The position numbers were made by a program, and so were the translations under genes. From Methanolobus chelungpuianus (GTDB lineage Archaea > Halobacteriota > Methanosarcinia > Methanosarcinales > Methanosarcinaceae), in NCBI RefSeq assembly GCF_024500045.1, contig NZ_JTEO01000006.1:124001-188000 (forward strand): a stretch of 64,000 nt of DNA, in the 5' to 3' direction. This document shows positions 17,611 through 27,070 of this stretch, piece after piece. The notes below the pieces were generated by a model that was not told the DNA's origin, did not search any database, and saw only the letters and a list, made by a program, of their open reading frames with translations. Every line of letters begins with the position of its first letter. Position 1 is the first letter of the stretch.

Positions 17611-18855
17611 ATGAAACTGGATGAAAGGATATACGGCTCACAGCTGGCCACCATAGAAAGGGAACTTCTCTTCAAACGTGAGAACACCGGCTTTGTGAGG
17701 TTTGACGGAAACAGCCGGCGTATTTTCTATCTTGATCCTTCGCCTTTTTTGCGCTCGAACAAGAACGAGGTCTTCTACCTGACCTGCGGGAAGGCACCTG
17801 TCAGGAACAGCCTTGTGGAAGTACATGTCACAGACTCGGAGGTGATCCACAGCGGAGGCAAGGGCGGGTTCAGCAAAACTATGGTGAAGTTCGTGGACAG
17901 CTGGGAAAGCATTGCTCCCGCCTCCATATCTAAGGCCAGGGGCCTGCTGGACTTTGAAGAGGTCATCGACTGGTTCAGGACGCCTTATGTAGGAGACAAA
18001 GGTGTGCTTGACTGTATCGGTATGGGCAGCGCCCTGTATATATCCTCCGCTCCTCCCTACAGAAGGCATGTGGGAGGCATCAATGCAGCCGTGCTCGGGA
18101 AACAGAAAAGCTGGAACGGATACACCGGATCGATGAACACGATCATTCCTGCTGATTTCAGGAGAGCATCTTCTGATTACTATTACAGGATCTCGGAGCA
18201 GGACAGGTATATAGGGCCGGAAGGTAAGAAAGAGCTAAGCCTGTCCTGTCTTAACCCGACACTGACACCTATGCAGCTGCCTATCATACTGGATGTAGAG
18301 GATGTGAAGGGCAGAAGCAGGATCAATGAATATTGCAAAGAGGACTATCCTGTGCTGGGTGCACATATCATAGACTCATTACTTGTGAATCCTTCCATAC
18401 CCGGGACGCTTGAACCCTATATCGCTGAGAAGACCTATGAACTCAAGAACGACCTCATGGACATGGGCGGTCTTCCGTACAACCAGGACCTGGGCTCGGC
18501 AATTTCCCTTATGGGCCTGGCCTATGCAAGACTGCAGCACAAGACCGGGTGTTCAAAAGAGGACATAAAGGAGGTCTTTGAGTTCTGGACGGATATGACC
18601 CATAATGCCAGCAGGGAGTTGTCAACCCCTGCATCACTTACCGAGCTCTACAGCCTCAGGAGGGATGAGAGCACCCTTTACAAGGACCTCTGCAGTGCCT
18701 TTGGGACTGATGTTGATGTGCCTCTGCCGGAAGCAAAAAAGGCAACAGCACTGAGTGAACCTGCATTCGGGGATGCCCTTCTGAAACTCAACCTTAAAGG
18801 GTATGTGCTCCTGATGGATAATTCCATGATCATCCGTATCCTGTGTAAGGTGTGA
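17611..18855 (+). CDS. Conserved-looking hypothetical protein, 414 aa
   Basis: Not recognised. Soluble; no signal peptide or membrane helix. The N-terminal third is beta-rich with FVRFDGNSRRIFYLDPSPF-like strands; the middle holds the sequence SLSCLNPTLTPMQLPIILD; the C-terminal region is helical and ends in a domain with the look of a short winged helix (ALLKLNLKGYVLLMDNSMIIRI, read as two motifs). Codon use matches host genes. It stands alone, followed by a 520-bp gap that contains the candidate RNA gene. Could be a DNA-associated or regulatory protein; evidence is thin. Confidence 0.6.
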   Translation: MKLDERIYGSQLATIERELLFKRENTGFVRFDGNSRRIFYLDPSPFLRSNKNEVFYLTCGKAPVRNSLVEVHVTDSEVIHSGGKGGFSKTMVKFVDSWESIAPASISKARGLLDFEEVIDWFRTPYVGDKGVLDCIGMGSALYISSAPPYRRHVGGINAAVLGKQKSWNGYTGSMNTIIPADFRRASSDYYYRISEQDRYIGPEGKKELSLSCLNPTLTPMQLPIILDVEDVKGRSRINEYCKEDYPVLGAHIIDSLLVNPSIPGTLEPYIAEKTYELKNDLMDMGGLPYNQDLGSAISLMGLAYARLQHKTGCSKEDIKEVFEFWTDMTHNASRELSTPASLTELYSLRRDESTLYKDLCSAFGTDVDVPLPEAKKATALSEPAFGDALLKLNLKGYVLLMDNSMIIRILCKV

Positions 18856-19067
18856 TAATGAATTTCTACTATATTCAGATCTGATAAAATGGGGAAAATG
18901 TAGGGAAAACATAGGAAAAACAGAGTTTTTCCGTGTGTATCACAAATGAAATTACGATGTCGTTAAAAGAAATGTCCTCCTCTGAAAATAAAGCACAACA
19001 CCATCTTCACCTTCAACACCGGATTCAGTAAGGTTTGGGTTATATAAAAGCAGGGCCTAGTAGTAGT
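18856..19067. other. Gap before the candidate RNA gene
   Basis: AT-rich and without open frames. A TATA box TTATATAAAA at 19040-19049 precedes the structured segment by about 19 bp of spacer, which is the right distance for an RNA starting at 19068. Confidence 0.4.
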
Positions 19068-19192
19068 GCGGGTCGTGGGGAAATGAACCGCAAATCGGGA
19101 GTGGAGTAGTAGAGAGATGTTGGGGAACATCTCGGATTCGTCAGGAAGGAGGCACCCTAAAGCGTGGTGGTTTCCGGGTGCCTCATCTTTCC
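19068..19192 (+). ncRNA. Candidate structured small RNA, about 125 nt
   Basis: A GC-rich island without an open frame begins about 25 bp after TATA box 19040-19049. Three stems follow in order: GCGGGTC (19068-19074) with GAACCGC (19085-19091, one mismatch); a perfect eight-base stem GAGATGTT-GGGG-AACATCTC (19114-19133); and a perfect nine-base stem GAGGCACCC (19149-19157) with GGGTGCCTC (19176-19184), ending in ATCTTTCC. The layout of promoter, folded body and terminal hairpin with pyrimidine tail is that of a stand-alone RNA. I do not recognise it as RNase P, SRP RNA or a C/D guide. A 5' leader or riboswitch for the TIR gene is the alternative, but that gene has its own TATA element near 19343. 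Confidence 0.5.
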
Positions 19193-19377
19193 TTGAACTG
19201 TTATCGCTTACCTTTCAATCTGAACTGTTCTATTCCTATAAAGACAAATCCCATTGTCCGTTGTTTCCTTTCTTGTCCTTGCATGTCACGAAAGCCAATC
19301 CCTTTGCATTGTGCTGTTTTGGCTTTGCATAAGTCGTGAAGCTATTATATGAAGAAAGGCATCTCTTAATCTCTGCC
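19193..19377. other. Gap between candidate RNA and TIR gene
   Basis: Pyrimidine-rich spacer. GCTATTATATG at 19341-19351 is a plausible TATA element for the TIR gene, about 27-37 bp before its ATG. Confidence 0.35.
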
Positions 19378-19941
19378 ATGATCAACAGGATATACATCTC
19401 CTATGCTGACAACGATGAGCCTCTTGCGCAGGAAATGGCGCAGGCGCTGTGGGCTGTGAACCTTGAGAGCTCTTCTTCCATGTACAGTAAGATCCTGCAT
19501 ATATCCATGTCGCAGCGCATCCGTTTTGGTATCAGCCATTCAGACTGCGTGGTAGTCATTCTCACGAAGGAGGGAACCCTGTCTCCGCGCGTCAACCAGG
19601 AATTGGGCCTTGCTGCTGCCAATGGGGACAATCTCATAATCGTCCTTGCAGAAGATGGTGTAGAGCTTCCGATCATGGTGCAGCACCTGACACCTGTAAT
19701 CTTCACAGAGGACACCTTTACGGATGCTCTGGGATACCTCATCTATACACTGAGAAATCTTACCACATTCGAGTGGCTCAGGATAAAATGCCCTCACTGC
19801 GGTGAGGAAATGACCCAGTACATGACGCCGCAGGAAGAAGTGGACAGGTCCCTTATGGCAGGGACCGGGCTGAACACCATGTGCAATTATTGTGAAAGAG
19901 AACTTTTTCTTGATCCCAGGACATTCAAACCTGTACTCTGA
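19378..19941 (+). CDS. TIR-domain protein with C-terminal zinc ribbon, 187 aa
   Basis: Residues 1-125 read as a TIR fold: first strand RIYISYAD (4-11), a central SDCVVVIL strand, and SPRVNQELGLA whose glutamate occupies the catalytic position of TIR NADases. The C-terminal 60 residues carry CPHCGEEM and CNYCEREL, a four-cysteine zinc ribbon. TIR proteins act as scaffolds in signalling or as NAD-cleaving effectors in immunity; a lone TIR-zinc ribbon protein of this size is uncommon. ATG 19378 is chosen since it begins the fold and follows a TATA element by about 30 bp; the GTG at 19336 would lie before that promoter. Confidence 0.75.
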   Translation: MINRIYISYADNDEPLAQEMAQALWAVNLESSSSMYSKILHISMSQRIRFGISHSDCVVVILTKEGTLSPRVNQELGLAAANGDNLIIVLAEDGVELPIMVQHLTPVIFTEDTFTDALGYLIYTLRNLTTFEWLRIKCPHCGEEMTQYMTPQEEVDRSLMAGTGLNTMCNYCERELFLDPRTFKPVL

Positions 19942-24021: not shown

Positions 24022-24378
24022 GCATGCAACCTCAGCGGACATACACACTTATATAATGCAAAGAGTGCCTTTTCATACATTCAGCTCCTAAATATATCTT
24101 ACGTATGATTGCACATTCTACCCGTCTACGCATCTTAGAAATTATTATAAACTCCAAACAGTAGTTGTTGTCGATGATACAAATAGTAGCCGCATGTTTA
24201 TTCCAGAAACAACGTACCTGTACAAAAGCCGTGCAGCTGCAAGACTCCAAAGTAAGATCCATCATAACACGGATTGAAACATCTTTTTTTCTTGAAGACG
24301 ACAGGGAGATGAAACTCTCCTTGAGGGGTTTGCCGTGGTTTTCACAGGAAGACCTTAAAACTTATTGTATAAAGATCA
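24022..24378. promoter_or_regulatory. kup promoter region
   Basis: Minus-strand TATA box at 24050-24057. The rest, up to the histidine kinase terminator, shows only shadow frames; a degenerate GAGA...TCTC stem near 24306-24322 is the only other structure seen. Confidence 0.4.
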
Positions 24379-24400
24379 AATAGGCTTACAGCAGCCTATT
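24379..24400 (-). terminator. Hairpin after the PAS histidine kinase
   Basis: AATAGGCT-tacagc-AGCCTATT is a perfect eight-base stem directly next to the kinase stop at 24401. Confidence 0.6.
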
Positions 24401-25609
24401 CTATGCCTTCCCCACCACCACCCAGAAAATACTGCCCCTGCCTTCGGGATTATCCTCCACGCCATACATGCCGCCGTGAAGCTCTATTATCCTTTTTACT
24501 ATTGCCAGGCCCAGGCCGGTACCTCTGATGCCTTTCTTGTCTGCGCGCTGGAAGCGGTTGAAAATGTAGGGTTTGTCAGTATCCTGAATGCCGTGACCGT
24601 AATCCTTAACCGTTATTTTCCATGCGTCATTGGCGTCAAGGAAATCCACAATTATCCTGCTTCCCTGAGGGCTGTATTTTATTGCATTGGAGAGCAGGTT
24701 TGCAAAGACTTCTTCGAGGATGGGGTTGGCCATGGCGATACACATCATTTCAGTGTCTATCTCTATACTATGGCCCTTCTCTTCTATATCAGACCTGAAG
24801 TTCTCCACGGCCGAGCAAAAGAGCTGCACTATGTCCATCCTGTCAAAAACGATCTCATCGATCTTCTGCAGTTTACTCAGCTTGGTTGCTGAATCAAGCA
24901 GCCCTATGAGCTTCTTGGTGTTCTCATGTATCCTTCTGAGGGCAAAGGCTGTGTTATCATCGTGGTGATGTCGTTGCAGCTCTTCAGTGAACCCCAGAAC
25001 TATACCTGCAGGGGTAAGCAGGTCATGACGGATGATATCCGTGAAAAGTTCCTTCAGGTCATTGGATTCTCTCAGGTCCTCAATACAGCGTCGAAGTTCA
25101 ATCTCCGCCTTTTTCCTGCCTGTGATATCCCGTGCAACGCAGAGTAATGCCTCATAGCCTCCATAAGAGATCATTTTGGCACTTATTTCCACGGCCATCT
25201 CAGAACCGTTCTTCCTTGTCAGGCCAGTCTCAAAAACAGTCTTTTCATTCCTTGCCATCTGCTCTGCCATGGACAGCAGTTTAGGATCGCTCCCTTCCAT
25301 CAGATCCTCGGCCTGCATATCAAGCAGTTCATCCTCGCTATATCCGAGGTGGCTGATCGCAGCCCTGTTGACATAAATAATTCTTCCTGAGGTCGCGATG
25401 ATGAATATCTGGTCTTCCATACTGTCAAATATCAGTTTGAGCCTTCTATCCGGCCCTTCATTGAACCCGGTTTCCACATTGCCATCTGCCATCATACCAA
25501 GGATCGAATTATGCAGCTCCAGCGCCTTGATATGCTTCTGCTCACATTCGTTTTGCATGATCCTGCACTCCCGTTGTATCACACTATCTTGGACTATATG
25601 CACTTCCAC
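24401..25609 (-). CDS. PAS-domain sensor histidine kinase, 402 aa
   Basis: Soluble sensor kinase. A PAS domain spans about residues 53-170 (FDSMEDQIFIIATSGRIIYVN), followed by the dimerisation domain with phospho-acceptor histidine in IIRHDLLTPAG (about 199) and an HATPase domain with N box NAIKYSP, G1 DYGHGI and G2 GTGLGLA. No membrane helix and no receiver domain in this gene or next to it. Start is a GTG at 25609, preceded by GGGGAG. A remarkable nested inverted repeat lies 60-110 bp upstream. Confidence 0.9.
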   Translation of the reverse strand: MEVHIVQDSVIQRECRIMQNECEQKHIKALELHNSILGMMADGNVETGFNEGPDRRLKLIFDSMEDQIFIIATSGRIIYVNRAAISHLGYSEDELLDMQAEDLMEGSDPKLLSMAEQMARNEKTVFETGLTRKNGSEMAVEISAKMISYGGYEALLCVARDITGRKKAEIELRRCIEDLRESNDLKELFTDIIRHDLLTPAGIVLGFTEELQRHHHDDNTAFALRRIHENTKKLIGLLDSATKLSKLQKIDEIVFDRMDIVQLFCSAVENFRSDIEEKGHSIEIDTEMMCIAMANPILEEVFANLLSNAIKYSPQGSRIIVDFLDANDAWKITVKDYGHGIQDTDKPYIFNRFQRADKKGIRGTGLGLAIVKRIIELHGGMYGVEDNPEGRGSIFWVVVGKA

Positions 25610-25789: not shown

Positions 25790-27070
25790 TTAATAGATAT
25801 ATGACCTTATACCTTGAAGGTCACTGCCGGAGGAAACACTTAGTATGCTCAGGAACATCTCTTCATTTACCTCCGCAGAGGAAGCCGCGAACTCGATATT
25901 ACTGTCCTTCATGTTCTCAAGGCCTATGCCCTCGTATAGTTCATAGCTGAGTGCGAACGCCTTCTTATAGCCGAAATCCACTTTCATCCCTGTGGATGCA
26001 TCTATATTTTCAGGTATGTCCCATCCCGACAGAGGAAAATCGTAGTCGTCCTTCAGTGACTCGTACTTCTGCAGGAAACGGTCCTTTCTGTCAGCTGCAC
26101 TTGCGGGGTCGGTCTCATTCAGCACTATATATGTATACAGGTCAGCGTATCCCTCATCCATCCATAACTGGTCGAAGTTGCAGGCGCGCGTCCAGTAGTG
26201 AGCCAGTTCGTGGATCAGTATCTCACTGCTTGAGGTATGCAGCATCCATATGCCTTCTCGTCCTTTGTTGAACCCTCCATATCCGCCAGTCTCATTAATA
26301 TTGGCCTGTGTGATGGTGATGTCATAGGATGCCGGATATGGTATTCCCCAGGTTTCCTCGAGGATTGGCAGGCTCGTCAGTGCAGTATCAAGCATTTCCT
26401 GCGCCCATTCTTCTTCACCATCCCAGTATCTTATATTCACTGTTACATTCCGCTCCTGCAGGCGGACCACATCGCTGAGGACAAGGTAATCCGTGTGCCT
26501 GACAGCATTGACAAGGCAGGACCTGCCCCAGTCCGTGCCTCTCCGGAAAGTGTAGACACTGGCATATTGTTCCTCTTCGAGCTCATAATCATCCCTTGCC
26601 AGGTGTGTATCAAAACCTGATGGGACTTCCACTCTTACATGCGTGCTGTCTCCGTTTTCCATTATGTAGAAGACTGCAGTATTCTTGTTAATGGGCAAGT
26701 CGTACTCGATATAGAATACATAGTTATCACCATACCATACCCTGTTATTGAACAGGAAGGTATGATAAGATCCCTGCTCATTACGGACCCCTAATACTTT
26801 CTCATCATCATATGCCTTCACGTTTACAGCATCCGAAGGCAGGTAATGGTTAAATGTAGAGTAGTACCCGCGTTTGTATTTTGTATTTGTATCAGTATTG
26901 GAGAACAGGATCTGCTTTGTGACGTGTACCATCCCACCATCGGGGATAACGATATAATCAGAAGTGATCTCGGCTGTTATACCATTATCTCCAGCTACTG
27001 TGAATGGTATGCCGACTAAGAAAACAGTCAGCATGATCAACACGCACTTCTGTTTAAAAAGCAGTTTCAT
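25790..27070 (-). CDS. Secreted gluzincin-type metallopeptidase, 426 aa
   Basis: A signal peptide (residues 1-26, hydrophobic core LIMLTVFLVGIPFTVAG) directs export. The first 200 residues are beta-rich, as in the N-terminal domain of M1-type enzymes. The zinc motif HELAH (about 289-293) with a glutamate in WMDEGYADLY 20 residues on gives HExxH-x18-E. The substrate GxMEN motif of aminopeptidases is not evident; GGYGGFNK lies in its place. It is shorter than true M1 peptidases and ends soon after the catalytic domain. Probably cell-surface protein turnover. Confidence 0.8.
   Translation of the reverse strand: MKLLFKQKCVLIMLTVFLVGIPFTVAGDNGITAEITSDYIVIPDGGMVHVTKQILFSNTDTNTKYKRGYYSTFNHYLPSDAVNVKAYDDEKVLGVRNEQGSYHTFLFNNRVWYGDNYVFYIEYDLPINKNTAVFYIMENGDSTHVRVEVPSGFDTHLARDDYELEEEQYASVYTFRRGTDWGRSCLVNAVRHTDYLVLSDVVRLQERNVTVNIRYWDGEEEWAQEMLDTALTSLPILEETWGIPYPASYDITITQANINETGGYGGFNKGREGIWMLHTSSSEILIHELAHYWTRACNFDQLWMDEGYADLYTYIVLNETDPASAADRKDRFLQKYESLKDDYDFPLSGWDIPENIDASTGMKVDFGYKKAFALSYELYEGIGLENMKDSNIEFAASSAEVNEEMFLSILSVSSGSDLQGIRSYIY

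What the first reader, a model, noticed from the sequence alone, without database searches (positions are those of the whole stretch)
19068..19192. Candidate new small RNA with three stems and its own TATA box
A GC-rich, frame-free island starts about 25 bp after a TATA box and folds into a 7-base stem, a perfect 8-base stem with GGGG loop and a perfect 9-base stem followed by a pyrimidine-rich tail. It does not look like any common archaeal RNA I know.
Basis: partly seen in the sequence, partly recalled or inferred. Interest (0 to 1): 0.55.

Follow-up and report, generated by a model that had tools for sequence, protein, structure and literature searches.

The report
Multi-copy Methanolobus three-hairpin small RNA
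This is one copy of a family of small structured RNAs, present about twenty times per genome in some Methanolobus methane-making archaea, with its own promoter and a lasting link to a family of gene regulators; some members were probably seen before as cold-induced RNAs, but their target is unknown.

Summary
Window 19032-19192 holds a BRE/TATA promoter and a three-hairpin RNA (z -3.1). No Rfam family matches. The RNA has 21 model matches in this genome and 2-34 in ten other Methanolobus genomes, and none at E <= 1e-4 in the other 174 genomes of the order. Covariation is decisive: 23 of 26 pairs change on both sides over 134 distinct copies (score 0.318; shuffled 0.171; slid at most 0.079). Copies share a promoter with an upstream, partly palindromic box. 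In 33 of 109 elements hairpins 2 and 3 are repeated. In three genomes 37 of 59 loci lie near FilR1-type regulator genes, about 2 expected. M. psychrophilus R15 bears 18 loci; [quoted passage not shown] sequences not compared). Most likely a trans-acting regulatory sRNA; target and mechanism are inferred.

The parts
18956..18993 (+). Upstream promoter-control region of this copy (GATGTCGTTAAAAG ... TCTGAAAATAAAG), by eye a variant of the family's upstream box
   Evidence: Conserved upstream module in 58 non-redundant copies; the window scores -3.1 with the refined box matrix, and L033, L048, L103, L109, L115 score zero or below, so they carry another variant, grouped by eye; coordinates
19021..19033 (+). 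Counterpart of the conserved ATTAA element before the BRE (here GGATTCAGTAAGG)
   Evidence: Positions -15 to -11 are 88-97% conserved in 58 copies; coordinates
19032..19049 (+). BRE and TATA box (GGTTTGGGTTATATAAAA)
   Evidence: TTA and AT of the TATA motif 95-100% conserved in 58 copies, partly by construction because rows were anchored on it; 91 of 95 upstream regions put it within the same 4 positions; coordinates
19066..19192 (+). Three-hairpin small RNA; 5' end inferred about 20-25 nt after TATA, 3' end not mapped
   Evidence: cmsearch 130.9 bits over model positions 1-125 at 19064-19192 (same place); this copy is also a row of the model's seed
19067..19092 (+). Hairpin 1, G-rich loop
   Evidence: 9 of 9 modelled pairs with both-sided changes; 88.4% of cells paired
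19097..19105 (+). Linker GGGAGTGGA, conserved in most copies
   Evidence: Alignments A1 and A2; absent or altered in some sub-types
19114..19133 (+). Hairpin 2, GGGG loop
   Evidence: 7 of 8 pairs with both-sided changes; 96.5% of cells paired
19149..19184 (+). Hairpin 3; 18-nt loop 19158-19175 with conserved AAGCGTGGTGGTT
   Evidence: 7 of 9 pairs with both-sided changes; 94.8% of cells paired; 13 of the 18 loop positions are at least 90% conserved in 96 copies; coordinates
19185..19216 (+). Pyrimidine-rich 3' tail, possible termination region
   Evidence: Sequence; termination inferred
19336..19941 (+). Downstream neighbour: TIR-domain protein (not part of the RNA gene)
   Evidence: PF13676, E 6.2e-11
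17611..18855 (+). Upstream neighbour: 414-aa protein without Pfam match (not part of the RNA gene)
   Evidence: an orthologue at 76-94% identity lies beside the RNA in five other RNA-bearing genomes

Best explanation
A stand-alone small non-coding RNA gene of a multi-copy, Methanolobus-specific family. Each full copy has its own archaeal promoter under an upstream regulatory box and should yield a transcript of about 125 nt (about 230 nt where hairpins 2 and 3 are doubled) made of three hairpins whose loops expose G-rich sequence, above all GCGUGGUGGUU in hairpin 3. It most likely acts in trans as a regulatory sRNA: loop 3 pairs with C-rich or start-proximal mRNA sites, possibly including mRNAs of the neighbouring FilR1-type regulators, under conditions such as cold in which the box turns the genes on. 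Shown here: gene family, structure, promoter conservation, linkage to FilR1 genes. Inferred: transcription of this copy, cold control, trans action, target.
For: Covariation; 21 matches in this genome and the same place beside the upstream gene in five congeners; promoter and box at fixed spacing; 13 of 18 loop-3 positions at least 90% fixed while every helix has pairs changed on both sides; the downstream gene is convergent in 63, same-strand in 39 and absent in 7 of 109 elements, so it is no leader of a particular gene; R15 (G026, identified by the coordinate of Mpsy_0031) bears 18 loci, 15 of them with a promoter-like element by eye, and PMC5378194 reports nine highly conserved cold-induced sRNAs with a shared motif upstream of their promoters; FilR1 linkage; loop 3 can form 11 pairs with the start of typical FilR1 genes.
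Against: No transcript of this copy seen; the paper's supplement with the nine sRNAs could not be read. Target pairing is weak: mean duplex energy -12.18 for 75 FilR1 starts (of 77; two too short) against -10.85 for a sample of 250 other genes, P 5e-4, homologues not independent, and of four other RNA segments one shows a slight (P 0.10) and three no or the reverse preference; the two strongest duplexes listed are an artefact, an ORF that begins inside another RNA copy (left out of the means). At gene ends loop 3 shows the reverse preference. Codon bias at the pairing site is matched at other Leu columns that cannot pair. The 40 starts from RNA-lacking congeners are mostly other FilR1 subfamilies with guessed starts, so that contrast is confounded.
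Confidence: 0.6

Rival explanations
1. Protein-sequestering or protein-scaffolding RNA: the exposed G-rich loops (GGGG, GUGG, GGA) bind an RNA-binding protein and titrate it, as CsrB/RsmZ do with CsrA (recalled); the doubling of hairpins 2 and 3 adds binding sites.
For: Loop 3 and the GGGG of hairpin 2 are strongly conserved; GUGG 305 against 86 expected over 96 copies; doubled core in 33 of 109 elements; many copies per genome.
Against: GGA count only 5.1 against 4.0 per RNA in shuffles, so the CsrA-type motif is not specially enriched; no candidate protein was found, nor searched for; archaea lack CsrA (recalled).
Confidence: 0.25
2. cis-acting element: convergent transcription over the FilR1 gene tail, or a 5' leader or terminator of the next gene.
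For: 28 of 109 elements have a convergent FilR1 gene next downstream, 18 of these with its stop 70-85 bp past the RNA.
Against: 60 of 109 elements have no FilR1 gene as a direct neighbour and both orientations occur; the promoter is conserved in full copies; the window's copy keeps structure and loops with no FilR1 neighbour.
Confidence: 0.08
3. A non-functional repeat such as a MITE that happens to carry hairpins and a promoter.
For: Multi-copy, scattered, patchy among species.
Against: Compensatory changes in all three stems; no inverted repeats flanking the unit in three copies examined, those found in L033 and L054 lying in the promoter region or hairpins; copies kept at orthologous places; no match in the plasmid, phage or viral collections.
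Confidence: 0.04
4. Chance hairpins in a GC-rich intergenic stretch.
For: z of only -3.1 for one sequence.
Confidence: 0.005

Closest known systems
Nine highly conserved cold-induced sRNAs with a 'cold box' in Methanolobus psychrophilus R15 (Li et al. 2015, PMC5378194)
   Same: Same genus; R15 bears 18 loci of this family, 15 by eye with a conserved promoter and upstream region, as the paper describes for its nine (passages read)
   Different: The passages read give no structure, family model, species range, FilR1 link or sequence; identity with this family could not be checked letter by letter
sRNA154 and sRNA162 of Methanosarcina mazei
   Same: Intergenic sRNAs of a related methanogen that act on mRNAs in trans; sRNA154 through hairpin loops (review PMC5867862, passages read)
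   Different: sRNA154 is described as highly conserved in Methanosarcina; model R1 has no match at E <= 1e-4 outside Methanolobus. The genomes searched are unnamed, so that Methanosarcina is among them is inferred; the sRNA154 sequence was not compared
CsrB/RsmZ-type decoy RNAs (bacterial, recalled)
   Same: G-rich motifs in hairpin loops, modular repetition
   Different: GGA not notably enriched; no CsrA known in archaea (recalled)

Membership tests
Cold-box sRNAs of M. psychrophilus R15 | Several highly conserved copies in the R15 genome | tested here: met
   25 matches at E <= 0.01 in G026 = R15, 23 of them (all but two at E 0.007) forming 18 loci
Cold-box sRNAs of M. psychrophilus R15 | Conserved motif upstream of the promoters | tested here: met
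   whether it is the published motif is unknown
Cold-box sRNAs of M. psychrophilus R15 | Induction at 8 degrees C | not testable with these tools
Cold-box sRNAs of M. psychrophilus R15 | Sequence identity with the nine published sRNAs | not testable with these tools
   Sequences are in supplements
Any of 4227 Rfam 15 families | Match at or above the gathering score | tested here: not met
   Window: only a tRNA and a CRISPR repeat, both elsewhere; six matches at E 1.1-9.1 in 18850-19400, all below their gathering scores; none in four further loci
Methanosarcina sRNA154 | Homologue in Methanosarcina | tested here: inconclusive
CsrB/RsmZ-like decoy RNA | Excess of GGA in loops | tested here: inconclusive
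   5.1 against 4.0 per RNA; predicted unpaired 1.6 against 0.9
MITE-like element | Terminal inverted repeats | tested here: not met
   None flanking the unit in three copies; target-site duplications not tested

The most novel reading that the evidence does not exclude
A paired regulatory system: an sRNA family and a FilR1-type transcription factor family that expanded together in two Methanolobus lineages, in which FilR1 proteins bind the dyad-like box upstream of the sRNA promoters and the sRNAs, through the GUGGUGGUUUC loop, mask the start codons of FilR1 mRNAs (MKKPLL starts), making a network of some 20 RNAs and 30-50 regulators.
Probability: 0.15. Interest if true: 0.82.

Novelty: new member of a known kind. 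Interest (0 to 1): 0.6.

Why it matters
Few archaeal sRNA families are defined by structure (recalled), and some twenty related promoter-driven copies of one RNA in an archaeal genome would be unusual. The work supplies a covariance model, a species range and a testable partner (FilR1 regulators) for RNAs that were probably seen as cold-induced transcripts of a psychrophilic methanogen but have, in the passages read, no known target.

Tried and rejected
GGA-motif (CsrA-like) excess: weak. Pairing of loop 3 with FilR1 starts: small excess, but the codon test failed its control, since other Leu columns that cannot pair are as biased. A match outside the genus (G093, E 2.6e-4) lies in what reads by eye as coding DNA and is taken as chance. 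Terminal repeats: none. Mobile-element collections: no match. FilR1 count against RNA count: Spearman 0.73 over 27 genomes, not corrected for descent; on the mcrA tree only 3 to 4 independent pairs exist, too few for a test.

Rows set aside. RNA counts were typed; genomes whose only matches had E above 0.1 were entered as 0, G014 as 2 (3, one at E 0.83) and G023 as 7 (8, one at E 0.35); model counts are higher; 97 full-length of 144 hits, 96 after removing an exact duplicate. Model R1: built from 23 of these 96, chosen by me for diversity, then run on all 92 sources. promoters: 93 of 95 with a TATA score of at least 8 of 11, thinned to 58; 76 of the 81 matches were used; left out were two in R15, one in this genome, one in G012 (E 9e-4 to 9e-3) and the G093 match; 250 other genes are a random sample. 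Searches took 40 of the FilR1 genes of RNA-lacking genomes, from the capped list, which favours the best-scoring ones. A first parse of these 40 recognised only one and was redone.

Full report
OBSERVATION. Window 19068-19192 folds at -48.9 kcal/mol against -37.3 (sd 3.7) for shuffles, z -3.12. Hairpins lie at 19067-19092, 19114-19133 and 19149-19184, and a BRE/TATA at 19032-19049. It lies between a 414-aa ORF without Pfam match and a TIR-domain gene. No Rfam match.

A FAMILY, NOT A SINGLE GENE. A DNA search of 60 relatives gave 14 places in this genome and up to 21 in congeners; 11 genomes had matches below E 1e-5, all of one genus. A pattern scan of named genomes returned 37 stretches, all titled Methanolobus. 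A profile over the fetched regions found 144 hits, 97 full length and 40 core only, grouped into 109 elements, 33 of which carry a full unit followed by a second copy of hairpins 2 and 3, 7-58 nt and mostly about 20 nt later.

STRUCTURE IS UNDER SELECTION. On 23 chosen copies, 14 of 27 pairs change on both sides and covariation is 0.300 against 0.178 in shuffles; one of the five measures, the number of pair types, is not above shuffles there (93 of 500 as high). With the model built from them 136 matches were found in 92 sources. On 134 distinct rows 93.3% of cells pair, 23 of 26 pairs have both-sided changes, the score is 0.318 against 0.171 (sd 0.004) shuffled and 0.047-0.079 slid, and all five measures exceed all 500 shuffles. 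That alignment was fitted to the structure, which favours it; the MAFFT seed alignment agrees. RNAalifold on the plain MAFFT alignment of all 96 rows recovers hairpin 3 and only four pairs of hairpin 2, with 6 of 15 pairs changed on both sides; the variable 5' half is misaligned there. Folded singly, 94 of 96 copies have a hairpin at the 5' end, not always the modelled one.

RANGE. Model R1 matches 11 of 185 genomes of the order at E <= 1e-4, all in one genus. In the family search it matched 12 of 111 genomes at E <= 0.01; the one outsider lies in what reads by eye as coding DNA. In the genus 11 of 27 genomes have it, with 21 (this genome), 31-34, 25, 22, 8, 16, 2, 2, 10, 23 and 16 matches. 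On an mcrA tree of 26 genomes (RNA-bearing G010 gave no mcrA) the bearers form two high-copy groups and two scattered low-copy species; the best tree needs four changes, supported branches at least three. One gain with losses or transfer are both open. The window's place, by its upstream gene, recurs with the RNA in L040, L056, L082, L102 and L115, and by its TIR gene, in another arrangement, in L068. The upstream gene is found at 76-94% identity in five other RNA-bearing genomes, at 62-64% and interrupted in one RNA-lacking genome (G008), and otherwise only as 30-32% relatives.

PROMOTER. In 58 non-redundant copies the BRE and TATA, an ATTAA element and a block from -73 to -52 are conserved. 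Rows were anchored on the TATA motif, so its own conservation is partly by construction; 91 of 95 have it within the same four positions. A matrix refined from a 22-nt seed, TgAAAtTatAatGccaTTaAAA, falls at -71 to -73 in most copies that score well with it; of 182 hits in the fetched DNA, 96 lie upstream of an RNA on its strand, 42 upstream on the other strand (the box is partly palindromic) and 44 elsewhere. The matrix was made from these promoters, so the first two numbers are partly by construction. The window copy carries another variant of the region.

LINK WITH FilR1 REGULATORS. The commonest neighbour family has 78 ORFs in 45 loci; its ORFs coincide with FilR1_middle (PF08350) matches. 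In three genomes 10 of 18, 17 of 23 and 10 of 18 RNA loci lie within 1.2 kb of a FilR1 domain, against 0.5, 0.95 and 0.4 expected; conversely only 10 of 38, 17 of 54 and 10 of 32 FilR1 genes have an RNA that near. Over all fetched elements 49 of 109 have a FilR1 direct neighbour (46 with a lower ORF limit). FilR1 genes average 30.9 in nine genomes with at least five RNA hits and 10.75 in 16 without; descent is not corrected for, and G023 is an exception with 11. Of 28 convergent FilR1 neighbours 18 end 70-85 bp past the RNA. Part of this must be shared duplication of the pair. FilR1 of Methanosaeta harundinacea binds DNA, including its own promoter (PMC3991700, abstract and passages read). The box matrix has few strong hits near FilR1 genes away from the RNAs, so binding of the box by FilR1 is a guess.

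LITERATURE. G026 is M. psychrophilus R15: position 26,651 of the contig falls in a 1200-aa gene that reads by eye as a PAS-HisKA-REC kinase, as the paper states for Mpsy_0031. The passages read report 195 non-coding sRNA starts in intergenic regions; [quoted passage not shown] R15 carries 18 loci of this family, 15 by eye with the promoter, so the nine are very probably among them; the supplement was not readable. Among the titles listed by library searches (each a capped list of open-licence papers) I saw no later work on these RNAs.

MECHANISM. Loop 3 is at least 90% fixed at 13 of 18 positions, while each helix has pairs changed on both sides. GUGG is in strong excess, GGA is not. Loop 3 can form 11 pairs with GAAACCAUUAC at the start of typical FilR1 genes; mean duplex energy is -12.18 for 75 starts against -10.85 for 250 other genes, and -12.1 for 71 against -10.4 for 40 starts from RNA-lacking congeners. 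The codon test for selection on that pairing failed its control. I therefore hold trans-acting regulation as most likely, a protein decoy as the main rival, and the FilR1 mRNA as a candidate target only.

VERDICT. A real sRNA gene, one of about twenty in this genome, in a family without a match in Rfam 15, restricted in the genomes searched to part of Methanolobus and probably partly detected before as cold-induced transcripts.

Noticed in passing
L037 (G000:C4:735500-745500): Seven FilR1-type regulator ORFs in 10 kb with two copies of the RNA between them.
   Followed up: partly
window 24244-24280: A single Rfam CRISPR-DR7 repeat match (37.1 bits, gathering score 37); no further repeat seen by eye in 24040-24700.
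   Followed up: partly
L171 (G008:C27:1330-2073): The relative of the window's 414-aa gene in an RNA-lacking species has an in-frame TAG; pyrrolysine or decay, not examined.
   Followed up: no
window 19336-19941: TIR-domain protein with C-terminal CPHC and CNYC motifs, kept near the RNA in several species.
   Followed up: no
L047, L054, L085, L088, L115 and others: A second copy of hairpins 2 and 3 mostly about 20 nt after the first (33 cases), which would give a five-hairpin RNA if read through.
   Followed up: partly
G026:C1:1-6000 and 3071989-3072703: FilR1 genes and RNA copies lie at both ends of the R15 contig, that is around its start coordinate.
   Followed up: no
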